NCBI RefSeq assembly: GCF_028640845.1
Contig: NC_080542.1
Coordinates: forward strand, 64,307,064-64,371,063
Direction of reading: 5' to 3'
DNA length: 64,000 nt
From: Ahaetulla prasina
Lineage: Eukaryota; Chordata; Lepidosauria; Squamata; Colubridae
A program made the position numbers and the translations under genes. Shown here piece by piece: positions 15,301-32,300 of the stretch (position 1 is its first letter; each line of letters starts with the position of its first letter). The notes under the pieces are model-generated. The model was not told the origin of the DNA. It made no database searches and saw only the letters and a program-made list of their open reading frames with translations.

Positions 15301-16800
15301 AATTGTATGTCTTCTCTCTTCTCCCTTCCTGGAAGTCATGAAAATTTTGTTTGATTTCTGATATTAGAGGGAATGCAATGGGTTATGGGGAGTAGTTTTG
15401 TGTTTTGATAACTAAGTCAGTGCAGAGATCCTAATTCCAAGGGAAAAAAGAATCTGAACCTTTACTCTAGATTTTTTTTACACAATCATTATTATTTTAA
15501 ATTAAGCTTGGATCTTATTTTTAACTCATGGTCTCACTTTCTAGATAATATTTTTGGAACTTGCAGGCAGCTAGATATAGAAGAACAATGAAATATTTAA
15601 ATAACTATATCACAATCAGATATATCAGAAGATATAAATGAGATATGATTTTAATCAGTATTTAAATATTTTAAAGTACAGTTACTTATTTTATATTTTA
15701 TAGTTAACTGTTTGCTTATGTAACATCAATTCCCTAACCTGGTCGTTCAGCGTTTCCAACACTTATCATTCTGGTAACTGGGTCTAATTATATCTAATTA
15801 ATTGAATTAATAAGATTGGTATTAGCATGTTAATTAACTATCTTTATAGACTGCTATTGTAAATTGTACTTTATCTGCTATAACTATTTCCATAGTTGTC
15901 CTTTTTTTTACCATTGGAAGTTTAGATTTTATTTAATTGGCATTTAGAAATCTTTCTTTCTATGAGGGATACTTGAAGCAAATCTAATAATGATTCCTCA
16001 CTATACTAAATCATGCCTTTTCCTTAAAAAAATCCATAAGAAGGGGATAGAAAAAGGGAGGTAATCAAAATTTCCACAAGAAAAATTGTTTTCAGTCTCA
16101 TTGTGTTCAATAGAACTTATTCTCAAATAAAGGCATACTTGTTCAATCTTTTAATAGTTAAAATATGTATGATTGTCAGTAACAATGACATATGAGTTCA
16201 TTTATCCTGCCATGTCCAATTTTTCACATGACAAATATTTTTTTCCTCTTAAAAGGTCTCACATAAAATATAAATCATCATTTTCTAGTTAATATTTAGG
16301 CATCTATTGTAGCACTGTAGACATGTAACTCCTTTGGATGGAATTGCTAGAGAGATTACTGTCATTCAGAAAAGGAAGAATGTCAAAAAAAATGGCATCC
16401 AGTGCTATTTAAAATTCAATAGCAGAACAGGAGAGAAATAAAAAAAAATACTCCAATTATAATGCTAGATTTTTAAAAAGGACACCTAGGAACTTCTAAA
16501 GTTAATTAAATATAATATTTGCCTCTGTGTAGAAGAAATTCCTTTACAAAGTATGCAATGGCAATGTGATCTCACTCTCTATGCATTTCCCTCCTTTTTT
16601 GTCTCCCATTATATGGACCAAGCCAAGCTTATTAGACAAATAGGCTCTTCTAATTTCTGCCTACCACTGTTATTTTATTTCTTTTCATGGATGCTTCTCT
16701 CTATAATTTTAGACACCCTTGCTCAGTATATTATACATTTTAAAAAAAAGGAATCTTAAGTAGTATTCTAAAAGTATCTCTGCTTGTTGACCTCAAACAG
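15301..16800. other. no gene recognised
   Basis: AT-rich sequence with no recognisable gene or repeat family. Confidence 0.6.
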
Positions 16801-17003
16801 TGAAAAGTTGTGCTCAGGAACACAGATGAAGAGCCAGACTTCCAGCAACAAAGTTTATTTAAGATAAGGATTCATTATAAACCAACATGCAGTTCCCTGC
16901 TTACAGCCCTTTTTTATAGGAAACTGTCAGCCTTTAACCAATAACTTTAAAATACATCCCGCACTTGTGCAGCAGAAGGGAAAGCCTCTATGTGGACATA
17001 ACA
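16801..17003 (-). repeat. 3' LTR of the Mag-like element
   Basis: 203 bp, reading TGTTATGTCC...CTTTTCA on the minus strand, so it has TG...CA ends. It contains a TATA-like TATAAAAA (16911-16918) and an AATAAA signal (16853-16858). It is clearly homologous to 25339-25529 but diverged and with small indels, so the insertion is old. A polypurine tract lies directly next to it at 17004-17020. Confidence 0.8.
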
Positions 17004-17279: not shown

Positions 17280-17800
17280 TGGCCCAGTTTGGTGTCTGGT
17301 CAATATATAAGTTGATAACTATATACTGCTAAAAACTCTGTCCAACACATCATTCTTGAGGTGTTTGCTGGTCCCCCACAATTAGTCCCAACAGTGGCTT
17401 ATGATCTGTCACTAAATCAAATTTCCTTCCATAAACATATTTGTGGAATCTTTATCCCAGGAACTGCAGCCTTTGGCTATAGTTCCTCTCAGCTGACGAT
17501 AGCATCTTAGAAAAGAACGCTATTGGGACCTCACAATTGTCTTGAAGGTAATGACTTAAGACTCCCCCAACGCCAAACAGGGTTGCATCACACATCAGGA
17601 TTAATGACAGATGTTCATTAAATTGAACTAAGACGCTATCTGAGGAAATTAATTTTTTCACCTCCACAAATACAGCTGCTTCTCTGTGCCCCCATACTCA
17701 TGGCACCTTTTCCCCCAATAGTTGATGTAATGGTTCAGTGGCAGATGCATTTTGTTGCAAAAGCACACTACAGAAATTGAGGAGCCCTAAGAAGGCCTGA
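17280..17800 (-). pseudogene. Mag-like RNase H remnant
   Basis: Minus-strand frames at 17452-17667 show an RNase H domain of the Ty3/gypsy type: LILMCDATLFGVGGVLSH holds the first catalytic aspartate, then PIAFFSKMLSSAERNYSQ. Further along, in another frame, DLVTDHKPLLGL (about 17390-17430) marks the later catalytic region. In the living element this enzyme would degrade the RNA strand after copying. The reading frame is broken, and the integrase expected downstream is absent. Confidence 0.75.
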
Positions 17801-17995
17801 AATTTAATTATTTATTTTACTTATTTATTTTGTCAAAAACATTCTAAACAATATATATTAGAATAAGCATGAAATAAACACACAAAATGAATACAACCAA
17901 AGGGAACATTAGGACAAGAACAGTAGGCACATTGGTGTTCTTATGCACGCCCCTTACAGACCTCTTAGGAATGGGGTGAGGTCAACAGTAGACAG
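17800..17995 (-). mobile_element. LINE-A 3' tail inserted in the Mag-like element
   Basis: A short, heavily 5'-truncated LINE-A copy: an ATTT-rich tail at 17802-17830, then the 3' UTR signature (CTACTGTTCTTGTCC on the minus strand) and the last codons of its product. It separates the Mag-like RNase H from the reverse transcriptase. Confidence 0.85.
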
Positions 17996-18223
17996 TAAAT
18001 TCAATCTTATTCTTTGGTGTTGGCACAGCATGTATTGCTTGTACTTTCTCCTTGGTGGGATACAATCTGGATGCATCAATGAGGTATCCAGGAACTCAAC
18101 TTGATTTACTGCTACTTTACACTTTTCTTCTTTTACCTTTAGCCCAGCCTCTTGAAATCTTTGTAACACTAGTCGTAGTCATTCAAATAATTCAATTTTA
18201 CTGGTAGCAGAGATGAGTACGTC
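17996..18223 (-). pseudogene. Mag-like reverse transcriptase, C-terminal half
   Basis: The minus-strand frame contains LQRFQEAGLKVKEEKCKVAVNQVEFL, shortened here to the recognisable blocks QEAGLKVKEEKC and VEFL, the connection part of a Ty3/gypsy reverse transcriptase. It begins at the inner chromovirus insertion, immediately after the first residues of the catalytic box. The other half of the same domain is 5.4 kb away at 23675-24170. Confidence 0.75.
18219..18223. repeat. target-site duplication ACGTC, left
   Basis: ACGTC directly flanks the left LTR of the inner element and recurs at 23675-23679 directly after its right LTR. A 5-bp duplication is the usual length for Ty3/gypsy integrases. 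Confidence 0.85.
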
Positions 18224-18765
18224 TGTTCTGTTTCCCTCCCCCCAATACTCCCAGCAAAGAGTCAGTCCTTTTCTCCTTTTATTTACATAGATACATGTCC
18301 TGGCCACGTCTACCCATGGGCCTGCCAAGTTTCTGGAGATAACGAGGAAATTATAGATAAGGCCAGAATTACTCACGAATATATTCTTCCCTCCATTGAT
18401 ACAGTTTGCCCGCGCAAATTCATTGCTTTTTCCAAGACAAAAAACCAGGAAGTCCCGCCTCCTATTTATAGTCTCTGCAGATGTCACTGCATGACAATTA
18501 TTACTTGGCTTTATCCCAATGTTGCTTCTGCTGCGCGCGCCACTCACGTCTGCGCAGTCTTGCATCACTCCAAAACTGTTCTTGGGGCGTTGCCAAATCA
18601 GAAGAAGGCTCCAGAGAATCAGGCCTTGCCGGCCCCTCCTCCTCCCTTTGAGTGGGTGCCAGGAAGGGAGAGGGCTCAAGAGAAGCAGGGCTTGCCAGGT
18701 CTTCTCCCTCACTTTCTGAATCATCCGAGTCCAGGAGTCCTGGTCCAGGAACCTGGGTCACACTA
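18224..18765 (-). repeat. 3' LTR of the sushi-type element
   Basis: About 542 bp. On the minus strand it begins TAGTGTGACCC (the 5' LTR copy begins TGTTGTGACCC) and ends CAGAACA. It has a TATA box at 18463-18470 and an AATAAA signal at 18278-18283. The transcript-start region has one mismatch to the 5' copy (TTTTTCC against TTTGTCC on the plus strand near 18428). Confidence 0.9.
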
Positions 18766-18790
18766 TCCCTCACCGCAGGGCCCTTCCCCC
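18766..18790 (-). other. polypurine tract region of the sushi-type element
   Basis: The minus strand reads GGTGAGGGA directly before the 3' LTR, preceded by GGGGGAAGGG. The pol stop codon (18770-18772) lies within this tract, so coding sequence runs right up to the LTR. Confidence 0.6.
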
Positions 18791-20381
18791 GGGGCTGACG
18801 ATCGGGATGCGGTCGGCTGGGTTCTGCTCATGGAAGGCCTGCACCAGGTCAGGGGCATGAACGTCGGAGGCATCTACCCAGGAGAAATCAGTCCCGTATC
18901 CCTTCCACGCAATCAAATATTGGAAACGACCCTTCAGCCAGTGGGAGTCTCGTACACTGTGGACTTCGTATTCCTCCGACCCATCCTCGGCGACAGTGAC
19001 GGTGCTGTTGGGCACCGAAGGGGACTCGGTGTGGCCTCAGGAACCAGAAGGGACCGGTGAAAGACGGGGTGGATCCGCATGGATCGTGGCAGGGTCAGTC
19101 GGTAGGCTACCGGGTTGATGACTGCCTCGACAGGGAACGGGCCGATGAATCGGTGGTCCAACTTCTTTACCGGGCGGTCGGACGGGAGGTGTTTGGTGGA
19201 GAGCCACACCCGGTCTCCAACTGCCAGCGGGGTGTTGTCCGTCGGGAGCGGTCGGCGGATCGTTTGTAGTCCTCCTTTGCCCGATCCAGCTGCTGACGTA
19301 CCAACTGTTGGACCGCATGCAATTCCGTCAGGAAGGTCTGCGTTTCGGGAACAGGAGAATCCGGTGGTGCCAGAGGGAAGAGCCGCGGATGGTACCCCAC
19401 ATTGGCAAAGAACGGGGTCATCTGAGTAGAGGTGTGCTGAGAGTTGTTAAAAGCAAACTCCGCCAGGGACAGGTAATCGGCCCAGTTGTCCTGTTGCTGG
19501 TTGATGAAGCAACGGAGATACTGTTCCAGGATACCGATGACCTTCTCTGTACCCCCGTCGGTCTCCGGATGGTGCGATGACGACAGACACACCTGCACCT
19601 CCAACGCGGCCATCAGGCTCTTCCAGAAGCGAGCTGTGAACTGAACTCTGCGGTCCGAAACCACCCTGTCTGGTAGACCATGGAAGTGGAAGATGTGCTG
19701 CAGAAAGAGACGGGCCGTTTTTGCGGCTGTGGGCAGTCCGCAGCATGGGATGAAGTGTGCCATCTTGGTGAGCATGTCCACCACCACCAGCACCGTGGTG
19801 AACCCAGAGGATGGTGGCAGGTCCGTCAGGAAGTCCATGGAGATCGCCCCCCAGGGTCTGTCGGGTGTTGGCAAGGGCTGGAGGAGCCCGGGAGGGGCCC
19901 CCATGGCGGCCTTGGCTTGCCGGCACGGTACGCAGGATGTCACGTAGGCATGTACATCATGCCGCGCTTAGGGCCACCAAAAGGTCCGTGTCACTAGGTG
20001 GAGGGTCTTGAAGAACCCAAAATGTCCTGCTGCAGGGTTGTCGTGGCACTGGGTCATGACGAGGGCTCGGAGTGGTCCTGTGGGCACATATAATCGCCCC
20101 CGAAACTTGAGTAAGTCCTCCTCCAAGGTCCAAGGAGATGCGGGGCCCACCTCCGTTCTCCTTTGCTGCGACCAGGCATCCTGGCTCTGCACCTCTCGCA
20201 TCTGGGCCCGCAAGTCCACTGGTTCCCGTGCTATGGCCAAGGCTTCTGCCGGCAGCACTGTCCGTGGAGGAAGGGGGTCCTTGGCACAGAGGTACTCTGG
20301 CTTGTGGGACAGGGCATCCGCCCTCCGGTTGTGACCGCTGGGAATGTAGGTCACGCGGAAGTTGAACCGGGCAAAAAACAA
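18770..20381 (-). pseudogene. integrase with C-terminal chromodomain, broken
   Basis: This would insert the element's DNA into chromosomes. On the minus strand the N-terminal zinc-binding part (HDNPAAGHFG...TFWWP) lies near 19970-20040. The core (19167-19943) shows the first aspartate in ISMDFLTDLP, the second in VVSDRRVQFTARFW, and the glutamate in TDGGTEKVIGILEQYL. A C-terminal stretch (18934-19209) with KLDHRFIGPFPV leads into a chromodomain at 18820-18980 (EEYEVHSVRDSHW, FQYLIAWKGY). Chromodomains direct integration to marked chromatin in chromoviruses. The frame is lost near 19960, near 19200 and again near 19010. Confidence 0.88.
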
Positions 20382-20399: not shown

Positions 20400-21013
20400 C
20401 TAGTTCAACTTCCGAGCTGTGGTGAGGTGCTTGAGATTCCGATGGTCCGTTCGGACCTCCACCTGATGTCGGGCCCCCTCCAGATGGTGTCGCCAAGCCT
20501 CGAATGCAGCCTTGATAGCCAGCAACTCTTTTTCCCAGATGGTGTGGTTGCGCTCGGAAGGATTGAGTTTCCGGGAGTAGTAAGCGCAGGGAAAAAGTGT
20601 GCCGCCATTCGTCGGAGCCTGTAGCAGCACCGCTCCCAGAGCCACATGGGACGCGTCCGTTTCCACCACAAAAGGCCGGAGCGGGTCGGGATGCCTCAGG
20701 ACGGGTTCCATGATGAAGGCTTTCTTGAGGGCGGCGAATGCTTCTTGCTGCGGGGGACCCCACCGGAATGCAACCTTCTTCCTGAGGAGCTGGGTAAGTG
20801 GAGCCGTTAGTGTGGCAAAGCCCGGTAGTAGTTGGCGAAGCCCAGCAGGCGCTGAACATCCTTCACCCGACGAGGGGCTTCCCAGCTACACAAAGCTTCT
20901 ACTTTGCATGGGTCCATGGCTATGCCCTCGGGCGAGATGATATGCCCGAGGAATTCTATGGAAGTCCGGAAGAAGATGCATTTCTCCAGCTTCGCATTGA
21001 GTTGTTGCTCCAT
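20400..21013 (-). pseudogene. reverse transcriptase connection and RNase H, broken
   Basis: The minus-strand frame at 20807-21013 holds the end of the reverse transcriptase (KLEKCIFF, EFLGHIISPEG, LLGFANYYR). After a frame change near 20810, the frame at 20400-20711 holds RNase H: PFVVETDASHVALGAVL with a catalytic aspartate, YYSRKLNPSERNH, and VRTDHRNLKHL. It ends at a premature TAG (20400-20402), beyond which the same frame continues into FFARFNFRVTYI and the integrase. The RNase H would remove template RNA in virus-like particles. Confidence 0.85.
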
Positions 21014-21059
21014 AGCGTTGCAGAACCAGACTGGCGTGTCGAAGGTGGCTTTCCTGGAC

Positions 21060-22161
21060 CGAGTAAATCAGGATGTCGTCAGGTAGATAACCACGAACCG
21101 ATCCAACATGTCTCGGAACACGTCGTTCATGAAGTGCTGGAAAAGCGGCGGGCGTTGGTCAACCCAAATGGCATGACAGTGTATTTGTAGTGTCCGTATC
21201 GGTGCGAATGCCATCTTCCATTCGTCTCCTTCTCGCATCCGCACCAGGTTGTAGGCCCCGGAGATCGAGCTTGGTGAAGATCGTGGCCTCCGCAACCTCT
21301 CCAGCAGCTCCGGGATGGCGGCGGGGGTAGCGATTCCGCACCGTAATGGCGTTAGCCGGCGGTAATCACAGCACAGGCGCAAGTCCCTGTCTTCTTCTTC
21401 ACGAAGAGGACCGGGGCCGAGAGGGACTTTGAAGGCGGATGAACCCTCGGGCCAGATTTTTGTCCAGGAAGTCCCTGAGGCGGCCAACTCGGGCTCCGAC
21501 ATGGAATACAGGCGTCCCACAGGCAGTGGTGCGTTGGGCAGAAGGTCCACGGGCAATCGTGGGGCTGATGCGGGGGTAGTCGGTCCGCCTCCTTCTCGCT
21601 GAACACGTCGGCGAAGTCCGTCAGCTCAGGAGGCAAGGTGATGGCAGCGGTGGGGACGTTCTGGCCGGCACAGGTGTGGCGGATGTGATCGACGCACTGC
21701 AGACTCGGGAAAGAGATGGCGTTCCGCGACCAGGCCACCTGAGGATCGTGGGTCCGAAGCCAGGCCAACCCAAGGACCAAGGGAAAATGAAGGTCCGCCG
21801 TGACATAAAACTGGATCGCCTCCTCATGGTCCCCAATAGCCAGGCGCAAAGGCTGGGTGGCAAATTTAATGGGGCCGGACACCAGTTCTCGTCCATCAAT
21901 TGTCTCTACCCGCATCGGAGGGTCCACCGGAACCACGGGGACCGCAAACTGGGTCACAAAGGCCTGGTCCATAAAGTTTGTTGTGGCCCCTGAGTCCACC
22001 AGCGCATGTGCCTGGAGCCCGTCCGACTGGTTCCCCAACCATATCCGTGTGTCCAGAATCAGATGCCGAGGGGGCCCAGAGTCTACTTCCACAATGTCCA
22101 GTGGGGGCTTAGTACGTGCCCGACCTAGGGTTTCTCCGAGGTCGGGCCTGCTCCGTTTCCC
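21060..22161 (-). pseudogene. protease and reverse transcriptase, broken
   Basis: From the frameshift site the pol frame is open to 21352. Its protease core HALVDSGATTNF (DSG active site, about 21970-22010) is intact, and the LPPELTDFADVFSEKE linker follows. The frame then shifts near 21570. Reverse transcriptase pieces continue in another frame (21068-21556) with LRLCCDYRRL, AYNLVRMREGDEWK and FQHFMNDVFRDML, with two or more further breaks. A one-base deletion inside the catalytic motif near 21085 makes it read YLTT followed by a stop. I describe these breaks without reconstructing the protein. Confidence 0.85.
22118..22161 (-). promoter_or_regulatory. -1 ribosomal frameshift signal between gag and pol
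   Basis: The minus strand carries the slippery heptamer GGGAAAC (22155-22161) in the gag phase G-GGA-AAC. A 7-nt spacer follows (22148-22154), then a perfect 9-bp stem: GCCCGACCT (22139-22147) pairs with AGGTCGGGC (22118-22126) around a 12-nt loop. The gag stop TAG (22125-22127) overlaps the stem's 3' arm. The -1 frame is open from the heptamer straight into the protease. The same heptamer is used by PEG10, a domesticated sushi relative. Confidence 0.85.
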
Positions 22162-23084
22162 GATTGGTCACGCTGTGATTCGGGGACTGGCGTGCGTGCC
22201 CCACTTCGCTTTCTGGGGCAAGAAGCAGCGAAGTGGCCGGGCTCCCCACAGTACAGGCACAATCCCCCTTGGCGCCTCCGGTTCCGCTCCTGGGCTGTCA
22301 GGCGAGGTCTGGCCGCTCCCAACTCCATGGGCTCTTCCGCAGCGGTTACAAAATGTGGGGCGACCCGGGGTGCTGGTGGTGCAGGAAGTGGGGGTGCAGA
22401 TGTCGACGGCAGGTCCCGGGGGGTGTGACGGGACGGTCGCCATTGCAGACGGGCATCAAGGCGGAGACAAAGGGGCACCAAGCTGTCGAGGGTCCGTGGC
22501 GCCTCCACCTGGGCCAGCTCATCTTGCAATTCCTCTGAGAGTCCCTCCTGGAACGCGTCCACCAGCGCTGCATCATTCCAGTCAAAGTCCTGGCACAAAA
22601 GACGAAATTCGGCGATGTACTCCTGCAGGGGGCGTTTCCCTTGACGGAGTTCCTTAAGGCGCCTGGTTGCCGTCAGCATTCGAACGGGGTCCTCGTACAT
22701 GGTGCGCAGGTGCTGCCAAAAACGCTGTTGGTCCGCCAGCAGGGGGCTGTCCTGGAGCAAGAGGGGCGTGGCCCATCGAGCAGCCGAGCCAGAAAGAAGG
22801 TTAATCACGAAGGCCACCTTAGCCCGGTCGTCTGGGAAATCCTCTGGCCTCATAGCCATGTAGAGCTGGCACTGTCCCAAGAAGGTCGGGAACATCTCAG
22901 GCTGCCCAGAAAACTTATCCGGCACGGTTATCGGGCACTTGCGACGAGGAGGAGGTGGGAGGATGGGGGCTGCAGGCACATCCCAGGCAGCAAGTTGGCC
23001 TGCCAAGTGAGCCACTTGCTGCTGGAGCTGTTGATTAGCCGCTTGTAGCTGCTGTAACTGCTGCTGTACCTGCTGCTGGTCCAT
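22125..23084 (-). CDS. Gag of the sushi-type element, intact
   Basis: A complete 319-codon frame encoding the structural protein that would build virus-like particles around the element's RNA. It starts 40 nt inside the 5' LTR with a glutamine-rich, probably coiled-coil N-terminus (residues 1-32). A proline-rich linker and a capsid-like domain follow, with the FSGQPEMFPTFLGQC, FPDDRAKVAFVINLLSG and KRPLQEYIAEFRLLCQDF blocks. Near residues 278-291 there is one CCHC zinc knuckle (CLYCGEPGHFAASC). Length and motif order match Gag of sushi-ichi-type elements and the related RTL/PEG10 family. It is the only undamaged gene in the element. Pol expression would need the -1 frameshift near its end. 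Whether it is expressed is unknown. Confidence 0.9.
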   Translation of the reverse strand: MDQQQVQQQLQQLQAANQQLQQQVAHLAGQLAAWDVPAAPILPPPPRRKCPITVPDKFSGQPEMFPTFLGQCQLYMAMRPEDFPDDRAKVAFVINLLSGSAARWATPLLLQDSPLLADQQRFWQHLRTMYEDPVRMLTATRRLKELRQGKRPLQEYIAEFRLLCQDFDWNDAALVDAFQEGLSEELQDELAQVEAPRTLDSLVPLCLRLDARLQWRPSRHTPRDLPSTSAPPLPAPPAPRVAPHFVTAAEEPMELGAARPRLTAQERNRRRQGGLCLYCGEPGHFAASCPRKRSGARTPVPESQRDQSGNGAGPTSEKP

Positions 23085-23110: not shown

Positions 23111-23122
23111 GTCTTGGACAAA
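23111..23122 (-). other. primer-binding site, probable self-priming type
   Basis: One base inside the 5' LTR the minus strand reads TTTGTCCAAGAC. It lacks the TGG start of a tRNA-primed site. It is perfectly complementary, 12 of 12, to GTCTTGGACAAA at 23336-23347, the predicted 5' end of the element's own RNA. Tf1 and sushi-group elements prime reverse transcription from their own transcript end in this way. Confidence 0.7.
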
Positions 23123-23123
23123 A

Positions 23124-23674
23124 TGTTCTGTTTCCCTCCCCCCAATACTCCCAGCAAAGAGTCAGTCAGAGGCCTCCTTTTCTTCTTTTATTTACATAGA
23201 TACATGTCCTGGCCACGTCTACCCACGGGCCTGCCAAGTTTCTGGAGATAACGAGGAAATTATAGATAAGGCCAGAATTACTCACGAATATATTCTTCCC
23301 TCCATTGATACAGTTTGCCCGCGCAAATTCATTGCTTTGTCCAAGACAAAAAACCAGGAAGTCCCGCCTCCTATTTATAGTCTCTGCAGATGTCACTGCA
23401 TGACAATTATTACTTGGCTTTATCTCAACGTTGCTTCTGCTGCGCGCGCCGGTCACGTCTGCGCAGTCTTGCATCACTCCAAAACTGTTCTTGGGGCATT
23501 GCCAAATCAGAAGAAGGCTCCAGAGAATCAGGCCTTGCCGGCCCCTCCTCCTCCCTTTGAGTGGGTGCCAGGGAGGGAGAGGGCTCAAGAGAAGCAGGGC
23601 TTGCCAGGTCTTCTCCCTCACTTTCTGAATCATCCGAGTCCAAGAGTCCGGGTTCAGGAACCTGGGTCACAACA
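23124..23674 (-). repeat. 5' LTR of the sushi-type element
   Basis: About 551 bp with TG...CA ends on the minus strand (TGTTGTGACCC...CAGAACA). It carries the TATA box and predicted transcript start. Compared with the 3' LTR it has a small insertion near 23164-23175 and scattered substitutions. Confidence 0.9.
23347..23379 (-). promoter_or_regulatory. LTR core promoter: TATA box and predicted start
   Basis: TATAAATA (23372-23379) lies 32 bp upstream of G at 23347, where the 12-nt self-priming sequence begins. TATA spacing and complementarity to the primer-binding site point independently to the same transcript start. Confidence 0.7.
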
Positions 23675-23679
23675 ACGTC
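23675..23679. repeat. target-site duplication ACGTC, right
   Basis: Exact match to 18219-18223. Joining the flanks across the inner element restores the YFDD-box reading of the Mag-like reverse transcriptase. Confidence 0.85.
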
Positions 23680-25060: not shown

Positions 25061-25338
25061 GAACACTTATTTTCCACAAATGCTCAAGAAAAGTTTGTTT
25101 TTGAAAACTTGTTTATGATTATAACTGTGATATTTGTATATTCATTAGCTTCCAATATACAGTCAAAAAGGATTAAATAAGAATCCCACATCTTTGTTTC
25201 GGGATCAAATGGTGGGTTAGCCATTCTCTTTCCAAAACAACAGTCGTCACTCACACATGCCCCTTTTATCTCTACGACCTCTCAATCAGCACTTCTCTGT
25301 GTGGGCTCAGAGCCCAGCATTCCCTCCTTCATCACCAA

Positions 25339-25529
25339 TGAAAAGTTGTGTATGGGAACATAGACAAGAAGCCAGACTTCCAGCAGCAACGTTTATTTAA
25401 GATAAGGATTCATTATAAACCAACATGCAGATCCCTGCTCACAGCCCCTTTTTATAAACTGTCAGCCTTTAACCAATAACTTTAAAATATGTCCCGCACC
25501 TCTTTGTTCATGCCTGTGTGGACATAACA
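25339..25529 (-). repeat. 5' LTR of the Mag-like element
   Basis: 191 bp, homologous to 16801-17003 with indels; the minus strand begins TGTTATGTCCACACAGG. On its inner side the minus strand continues TTGGTGATGAAGG, a TGG-containing candidate primer-binding site that I cannot match to a tRNA. The flanking 5-mers (AACAG and AGTAG) differ at two positions, so the target duplication is uncertain. Confidence 0.75.
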
Positions 25530-29927: not shown

Positions 29928-30397
29928 AAACATTTTTACTAGAAGAATTCTTCACTCCTCCGAAAACAACAAAATACCTTATACCGACAGACTTGAAATC
30001 CTGGGATTAGAAAACTTACAACTCCGTCAACTTCGACATGACCTGTGTTTAACACACAAAATCATCTATTGCAATATCCTTCCTATAAAAGACTACTTCA
30101 GCTTCAATCGCAATATTACAAGAGCAAAAAATAGATTCAAGCTAAATGTCAACCGCTTCAAACTTGATTGCAGAAAATATGACTTCATTAACAGAGTTGT
30201 TAATGCTTGGAACTCATTACCTGACTCCATAGTCTCTACTCAAAATCCCAAAATCTTCAACCAAAAGCTGTCTACTATTGACCTCACCCCATTCCTGAGA
30301 GGACTATAAAGGGTCGTGCATAAGAGCACAAATGTGCCTACCGTTCCTGTCCTATTGTTCCCTTCATTATATCCAATTAATATAGTTGATGCATAAA

Positions 30398-30596: not shown

Positions 30597-30868
30597 TCAC
30601 AAACCCTGTGATCTCTTCCCAAAATCCCCAAAGCTTCAACCAAAAACTGTCTACTATTGACTTACCCCATTCCTAAGAGGTCTGTAAGGGGCGTGCATAA
30701 GAGCACAAGTGTGCCTACCGTTCCCGTCCTACTGTTTCCTTTTGTTATATCCAATTTATATAGTTATTACATGCTTATACTCATATATATGCTTATATAT
30801 TGTATAGTTATTTTTAATGCTTATGCTTATATATACTGTGTGACAAAATAAAAAAAATAAAAAAATAA
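30597..30868 (+). mobile_element. LINE-A 3' end, second copy in CR1
   Basis: Begins near CACAAACCCTGTGATCTC, covers the last coding codons (CTACTATTGACTTACCCC), the 3' UTR signature and a TAAAAAAAATAAAAAAATAAA tail. CR1 sequence resumes at about 30869. Confidence 0.85.
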
Positions 30869-31318: not shown

Positions 31319-32300
31319 GGCGGGGAATAATGAAGGGAGGGGGCAGAGGAGGCGGCGAGCGGGAAAGAGGCTGCTGGCCGTGCCTGCCCCCAGCAGTTCT
31401 ACCCTCGCCTTCCTCGGGCCGCCTGGCGAGGCTCCTCGCGCCTCCCCATGTTGGACACGCGTGGCGGCAGTAACAACATCGAGAAACAGGTGAGGAGGCG
31501 GCAAGCGCGAAAGAGGCTGCTGGCCGTGCCCGGCCCAGCAGTTCTATCCTCGCCTTCCTCGGGCAGGGAATAACGCGAGGGAGGAGGCGCAAGCGCGCGA
31601 AGAGGCTGCTGGCGTGCCCGGCCCAGCAGTTCTATCCTCGCCTTCCTCGGGCAGGGAATAACGAAGGGAGGGGGGGAGGAGGCGGCGGCAAGCGCGAAAG
31701 AGGCTGCTGGCCGTGCCCGGCCCAGCAGTTCTATCCTCGCCTTCCTCGGGCAGGGAATAACGAAGGGAGGGGGGGAGGAGGAGGCGGCAAGCGCGAAAGA
31801 GGCTGCTGGCCGTGCCCGGCCCAGCAGTTCTATCCTCGCCTTCCTCGGGCAGGGAATAACGAAGGGAGGGGGGGAGGAGGCGGCGGCAAGCGCGAAAGAG
31901 GCTGCTGGCCGTGCCCGGCCCAGCAGTTCTATCCTCGCCTTCCTCGGGCAGGGAATAACGAAGGGGGGGGGAGGAGGCGGCGGCAAGCGCGAAAGAGGCT
32001 GCTGGCCGTGCCCGGCCCAGCAGTTCTATCCTCACCTTCCTCGGGCAGGGAATAACGAAGGGAGGGGGGGAGGAGGCGGCGGCAAACACGAAAGAGGCTG
32101 CTGGCCGTGCTCGGCCCAGCAGTTCTATCCTCGCCTTCCTCGGGCAGGGAATAACGAAGGGAGGGGGGGAGGAGGAGGCGGCAAGCGCGAAAGAGGCTGC
32201 TGGCCGTGCCCGGCCCAGCAGTTCTATCCTCGCCTTCCTCGGGCCGCCTGGTGAGGCTCCTCGCGCCTCCACCCCTTGGGCAGGGAATAACGAAGGGAGT
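31319..32300. repeat. GC-rich minisatellite, about 99-bp period
   Basis: Copies of GGGCAGGGAATAACGAAGGG start at about 31561, 31649, 31748, 31847, 31946, 32043, 32142 and 32278 (variant also at 31319). Spacing is 88, 99, 99, 99, 97 and 99 bp, then an altered last unit. Each unit carries AGGCTGCTGGCCGTGCCCGG and CAGTTCTATCCTCGCC. The CGGGCCGCCTGG block occurs only in the first and last units. It sits inside the hAT element, ahead of the transposase. Confidence 0.92.

What the first reader, a model, noticed from the sequence alone, without database searches (positions are those of the whole stretch)
23111..23379. Self-priming architecture in a reptile sushi-type chromovirus
Seen: the site one base inside the 5' LTR (23111-23122) is perfectly complementary over 12 nt to 23336-23347 within the LTR. 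A TATA box at 23372-23379 places the transcript start exactly at the first base of that 12-mer, 32 bp away. No TGG tRNA-type site is present. Known: Tf1 uses the 5' end of its own mRNA as primer, and sushi-group elements have been proposed to do the same. Inference: this element's RNA folds back to prime its own copying. Two independent signals meeting at one base make chance unlikely.
Basis: partly seen in the sequence, partly recalled or inferred. Interest (0 to 1): 0.75.

Follow-up and report, generated by a model that had tools for sequence, protein, structure and literature searches.

The report
Snake retrotransposon with self-priming RNA layout
A decayed jumping element, very probably in a snake genome, carries a matched pair of short sequences that would let the start of its own RNA act as the primer for copying itself into DNA, a trick already reported for its relatives in yeasts and vertebrates, so it is a clean new example rather than a new mechanism.

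Summary
On the minus strand lies an LTR retrotransposon: 5' LTR 23674-23124, 3' LTR 18765-18224, flanked by the 5-bp duplication GACGT. After the 5' LTR and one spacer base, 12 nt (23122-23111) perfectly complement LTR positions 23347-23336. The LTR's only TATAAA starts 32 nt upstream of that 12-mer. Complementarity ends at the predicted RNA start on one side and at the LTR edge on the other. Of 20,000 shuffled LTRs, 8 gave a match of 12 nt or more anywhere. The predicted leader RNA folds with this helix closing it, in minimum-energy and centroid structures. The first tRNA-type TGG begins 41 nt after the LTR. The element is Tf1/sushi-like: PEG10-like gag, GGGAAAC frameshift signal, Tf2-like SH3 domain, chromodomain. 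Its closest named gag relatives are snake proteins. Its pol is broken. Self-priming is the best reading, but the RNA start is unmapped, Tf1's extra 'pretzel' duplexes were not found above chance, and covariation could not be tested because no other DNA copy was reachable. Self-priming is a published common feature of this group: a new member of a known kind.

The parts
23124..23674 (-). 5' LTR, 551 bp, TGTT...AACA
   Evidence: edges set by the TSD and by identity to the 3' LTR
23675..23679 (-). target-site duplication GACGT, 5' side
18219..18223 (-). target-site duplication GACGT, 3' side
23372..23379 (-). TATA box TATAAATA, only TATAAA in the 5' LTR
23336..23347 (-). putative self-primer GTCTTGGACAAA, predicted first 12 nt of the RNA
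23111..23122 (-). primer-binding site TTTGTCCAAGAC, one base after the LTR
23187..23192 (-). AATAAA poly(A)-type signal downstream of the predicted start, consistent with an R region
22125..23084 (-). gag, 319 aa open frame: DUF4939, Retrotrans_gag, Ty3_capsid and CCHC zinc knuckle; PEG10 is the best PDB match
22155..22161 (-). slippery heptamer GGGAAAC, the same as reported for PEG10
22118..22147 (-). 9-bp stem-loop beginning 7 nt after the slippery site
   Evidence: fold of 22161-22100: z -3.58, 0 of 200 shuffles as stable
21355..22167 (-). pol start in the -1 frame, aspartic protease
20810..21625 (-). reverse transcriptase region, broken into pieces in different frames; no Pfam RT hit in the four overlapping pieces scanned (other pieces of the region not scanned)
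20403..20885 (-). RNase H domain
19170..19967 (-). integrase core
18937..19446 (-). integrase C-terminal piece with Tf2-1-like SH3 domain (PF24626), in another frame
18773..19036 (-). chromodomain (PF00385), in a third frame
18766..18774 (-). candidate polypurine tract GGTGAGGGA next to the 3' LTR
   Evidence: by eye
18224..18765 (-). 3' LTR, 542 bp, 14 substitutions and one 9-base gap against the 5' LTR
18427..18438 (-). 3' LTR copy of the primer 12-mer with one mismatch

Best explanation
This is a defective copy of a snake Tf1/sushi-type chromovirus whose family primes reverse transcription with its own RNA. Transcription from the 5' LTR TATA box starts at or near 23347 (inferred), so the RNA begins GTCTTGGACAAA. 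That 5' end folds back onto the PBS at 23122-23111 (complementarity shown, folding predicted). The element's RNase H is then thought to cut the RNA after about nucleotide 11 or 12, freeing a 3' OH that starts minus-strand DNA at the LTR edge (inferred from Tf1). This copy's pol is broken, so it probably no longer moves on its own.
For: Perfect 12-bp complement at the correct place after the LTR, with limits at the predicted +1 and at the LTR edge. Single TATAAA 32 nt upstream. 8 of 20,000 shuffled LTRs match as well anywhere. Primer:PBS pair probabilities are 0.73 to 1.0 at lengths of 240, 264 and 303 nt, and the helix is in both the minimum-energy and centroid structures of the 263-nt leader. 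The 237-nt stretch ending at the PBS is more stable than its shuffles (z -2.1, 200 shuffles). No TGG before offset 41. Chromodomain, Tf2-1-like SH3 domain, PEG10-like gag, CCHC motif and -1 frameshift signal. Self-priming is described as a common feature of the Tf1/sushi group (passages of PMC10085805; PMC6317226).
Against: The transcript start is only predicted. The 263-nt leader is not unusually stable as a whole (z -0.58, 51 of 200 shuffles as stable), and with the two 12-mers removed the rest is no more stable than shuffles (z +0.23). The two extra 'pretzel' duplexes of Tf1 were not found above shuffled controls. The 3' LTR copy of the 12-mer carries a mismatch. In real window sequence, 132 of 42,268 placements reach 12 nt or more, more often than in shuffles. 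No second DNA copy was available to test covariation.
Confidence: 0.87

Rival explanations
1. The element is primed by a host tRNA through an unusual site, for example an internal or half-tRNA, and the LTR match is secondary.
For: Half-tRNA priming exists in some Ty1/copia elements (PMC6317226 passages). No vertebrate tRNA set was available to exclude it; ARAGORN found 0 tRNAs in the window.
Against: No TGG before offset 41. The 12-nt LTR complement at the TATA-predicted start would then be a coincidence. The group it resembles is described as self-priming.
Confidence: 0.04
2. The 5' end pairs with the region after the LTR for another reason, such as RNA packaging, dimerisation or translation control, and priming is done otherwise.
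For: The helix closes the whole leader, as structural 5' leader helices can.
Against: The complement begins one base after the LTR, just where a primer must sit, and stops there.
Confidence: 0.05
3. The match is chance.
For: 132 of 42,268 real-sequence placements in the window reach 12 nt or more, the true site included.
Against: Only 8 of 20,000 shuffled LTRs do, and position relative to both the TATA box and the LTR edge must also fit.
Confidence: 0.02

Closest known systems
Tf1/Tf2 and Tj1 of fission yeasts
   Same: PBS after the 5' LTR complementary to the 5' end of the element's own mRNA, and a chromodomain integrase (PMC10085805 and PMC4600332 passages); the window's integrase piece matches Pfam's Tf2-1-like SH3 domain
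   Different: The fission yeast Gags are reported to lack the CCHC motif, and these elements use one frame or an in-frame stop, not a -1 frameshift. Here there is a CCHC motif and a -1 frameshift signal. The side duplexes of the Tf1 pretzel were not found above chance. Tf1's primer is 11 nt (recalled); here the complement is 12 nt.
Vertebrate Tf1/sushi elements (V-clade, such as sushi-ichi; Butler et al. 2001)
   Same: -1 frameshift, chromodomain, and self-priming reported for the group (PMC10085805 and PMC6317226 passages; the Butler paper itself is not held); PEG10-like gag (relation of PEG10 to sushi-ichi from listings)
   Different: The host is a snake. Primer and PBS sequences were not compared, since no other vertebrate element's DNA was available.
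PEG10/RTL (SIRH) domesticated genes of mammals
   Same: Gag's best PDB match is PEG10 (7lga, E 1.7e-17); same GGGAAAC slippery heptamer
   Different: Here it is a retrotransposon copy with LTRs, target duplication and integrase.

Membership tests
Tf1/sushi group of chromoviruses | chromodomain at the C-terminus of integrase | tested here: met
   PF00385 E 6.1e-08 in the piece 18773-19036
Tf1/sushi group of chromoviruses | PBS complementary to the 5' end of the element's own mRNA | tested here: met
   12 of 12 bp at the TATA-predicted start; the start itself is not mapped
Tf1/sushi group of chromoviruses | no PBS for the 3' end of a tRNA | tested here: met
   No TGG before offset 41; pairing to internal parts of a tRNA not tested
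Tf1/sushi group of chromoviruses | 'pretzel' RNA with two further duplexes beside primer:PBS | tested here: inconclusive
   Best runs of 6 to 8 bp (G-U allowed); duplex energies within the range of shuffled controls in 6 of 6 comparisons
Tf1/sushi group of chromoviruses | -1 frameshift between gag and pol (usual in members outside fission yeasts) | tested here: met
   pol frame is -1 to gag, overlap 22167-22125, GGGAAAC followed by a stem; frameshifting itself not measured
Tf1/sushi group of chromoviruses | CCHC motif in Gag (members outside fission yeasts) | tested here: met
   PF00098 E 0.00031, 21.1 bits against a cut-off of 20.8
Tf1/sushi group of chromoviruses | monophyly with Tf1/sushi in an RT-integrase tree | not tested
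Self-primed retrotransposon (Tf1 mechanism) | RNase H cleavage of the mRNA near nucleotide 11 and use of the fragment as primer | not testable with these tools
   needs cDNA ends; the feature's exact position is recalled

The most novel reading that the evidence does not exclude
Within snakes, lineages of this sushi family have changed primer and PBS together, so that different snake families carry different matched pairs, giving a natural covariation test of self-priming in vertebrates. A cobra relative (P0004) reads QNILSRTP where this element, in one frame across the PBS, reads QNILSKTP. A brown-snake relative (P0010) reads letters upstream of gag that the PBS seen here does not encode in any frame, if that gene model is unspliced there.
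Probability: 0.45. Interest if true: 0.5.

Novelty: new member of a known kind. Interest (0 to 1): 0.3.

Why it matters
It extends a clean sequence case for self-primed reverse transcription to what is very probably a snake element. It also gives a concrete prediction: matched changes in two short sites among snake copies would test the mechanism in vertebrates from assemblies alone. It revises nothing known.

Tried and rejected
Covariation among copies: not achieved. Viral contigs gave no relative in six scans (gag; snake-weighted gag alignment; integrase; RNase H alignment; wide gag alignment; a 19-base LTR pattern). Genome contigs gave none in two scans, and phages none by tblastn with gag. 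Plasmids, E. coli genomes and metagenome contigs were not searched. Within the window the only long match to the LTR besides itself is the element's own 3' LTR.

A protein-database search with the LTR's chance open frame found one protein, from Ahaetulla (P0114). It covers U3 and ends in CSDICRDYK, which matches 9 of 9 letters of the window's translation of 23400-23374, up to the TATAAA. This suggests that the TATA box is conserved, but it does not reach the primer.

Protein letters of two relatives may read across the PBS region. P0004 (Naja naja, 345 aa) has RQNILSRTP where the window has KQNILSKTP in one frame. BLAST itself aligned P0004 there in the gag frame (48% identity, 33 columns), so the QNILS match was seen by eye. 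P0010 (Pseudonaja textilis) aligns there only weakly (29%, E 0.005). Both are gene models, so this is a lead, not a test.

Pretzel duplexes were sought and not found above shuffles (the position labels printed there by the energy program looked unreliable and were not used). Rfam gave 0 matches in the window at gathering thresholds.

Papers: eight searches were answered. In what they listed (20 of 27 papers, 20 of 144, 8 of 23) I saw no title or abstract start that describes self-priming in a snake or other reptile element. One search (self-priming, LTR retrotransposon, reptile, primer binding site) found 0 papers. The library is open access only. Passages of six papers were read; in one of them (PMC4340606) 'self-priming' meant a PCR artefact. 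Butler 2001, Lin and Levin 1997 (RNA) and Atwood-Moore 2006 are not held.

Full report
What is there. The element lies on the minus strand. The two LTRs are 23674-23124 (551 bp) and 18765-18224 (542 bp). The 5' copy begins TGTT and both end AACA, and the pair is flanked by a perfect 5-bp duplication, GACGT. They differ at 14 of 542 aligned sites (10 transitions) plus one 9-base gap, K2P 0.026, so the insertion is fairly young but not recent (inference; no clock was applied).

Primer and PBS. After the 5' LTR comes one base (T), then TTTGTCCAAGAC. Its exact reverse complement GTCTTGGACAAA lies in the LTR at 23347-23336. Beyond the first base of that 12-mer the next three positions do not pair. 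On the other side there is one G-U pair at the spacer base and then a mismatch with the last LTR base. The complementarity therefore fills just the stretch between the predicted RNA start and the LTR edge. The only TATAAA of the 5' LTR begins 32 nt upstream of 23347. AATAAA follows at 23192-23187, position 156 of the predicted RNA, so a U3-R-U5 order is plausible.

Chance. Of 20,000 dinucleotide-shuffled LTRs, 8 contained a complement of 12 nt or more to the true PBS (allowed to start 0 to 3 bases from the LTR), at any position. Of 42,268 placements of a 551-nt segment and its neighbour in the real window (every third base, both strands, the true site included), 132 did; the excess over shuffles probably reflects repeats, which was not checked. 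Requiring the match to begin within about 7 of roughly 540 positions allowed by the TATA box lowers both by about eighty-fold (arithmetic, not a call).

Folding. RNA from 23347 folds with primer:PBS as the closing helix at 240, 260, 264 and 303 nt; pair probabilities at 240, 264 and 303 nt are 0.73 to 1.0. The helix is also in the centroid structure of the 263-nt leader. The 237-nt stretch from 23347 to the end of the PBS is more stable than its shuffles (z -2.1), but the part between the two 12-mers is ordinary (z +0.23), and the 263-nt leader as a whole is not unusual (z -0.58). The evidence is therefore the helix itself, not a wider fold. The two side duplexes of the Tf1 'pretzel' could not be shown: the best candidates are within shuffled controls.

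What kind of element. Gag matches DUF4939, Retrotrans_gag, Ty3_capsid and a CCHC knuckle. Its best PDB match is PEG10. Pol begins in the -1 frame. The overlap carries GGGAAAC, the heptamer reported for PEG10 (PMC2800197 passages), and then a strong stem (z -3.58, 0 of 200 shuffles as stable). Protease, RNase H, integrase core, a Tf2-1-like SH3 domain and a chromodomain follow. The SH3 and chromodomain pieces and the RT region lie in different frames, with stops between pieces. None of the four overlapping RT-region pieces scanned matched a Pfam RT model; further small pieces were not scanned. This copy's pol is broken. The closest gag in the protein search is from the snake Ahaetulla prasina (93% identity over 85% of the query). 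The next two come from unnamed sources, and the next named ones from Naja and Pseudonaja (56 hits in all, fish among the distant ones). The host is thus very probably a snake; the species was not determined.

Mechanism. Shown by sequence: the matched pair, its place, the promoter box, the lack of a TGG site before offset 41. Inferred: transcription starts at 23347, the RNA end pairs with the PBS, RNase H frees a primer of 11 or 12 nt, and minus-strand synthesis starts at the LTR edge. An 11-nt primer would leave two bases beyond the terminal CA, the usual number removed by retroviral integrases (recalled).

Comparison. [quoted passage not shown] PMC6317226 (passages) says that self-primers have been described in Tf1/sushi elements of yeast and vertebrates. 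PMC4600332 (passages) says self-priming has been implicated from fungi to vertebrates. The finding therefore fits a known group and mechanism. The snake host and the exact primer sequence are the new details here. Whether this family has been described in subscription papers or repeat libraries is not known to me.

What is missing. No other DNA copy could be reached: eight collection scans and one phage search found none, and the own-genome search did not complete. Protein letters of two snake relatives hint that the PBS differs between lineages, which would make covariation testable from assemblies.

Noticed in passing
22161-22118 (minus): A complete -1 frameshift signal, GGGAAAC followed by a 9-bp stem; the GNG motif encoded at the slippery site is also seen in several Gag relatives of the alignment.
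   Followed up: partly
16798-16964 and 25336-25499: Two direct repeats, 88% identical, with TATA-like and AATAAA motifs, on either side of the sushi element; with a decayed RNase H-like relic at 17362-17799 they suggest that it inserted into an older LTR element.
   Followed up: partly
18765-18763 against 23674-23672: The 3' LTR starts TAG where the 5' LTR starts TGT; two adjacent differences at the terminus, unexplained.
   Followed up: no
31339-31971: A GC-rich tandem repeat with a period of about 99 bp that keeps long reading frames open.
   Followed up: no
17851-17995, 30233-30313 and 30612-30790: Three related stretches, one inverted, that look like a LINE 3' end (family recalled, not tested).
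   Followed up: no
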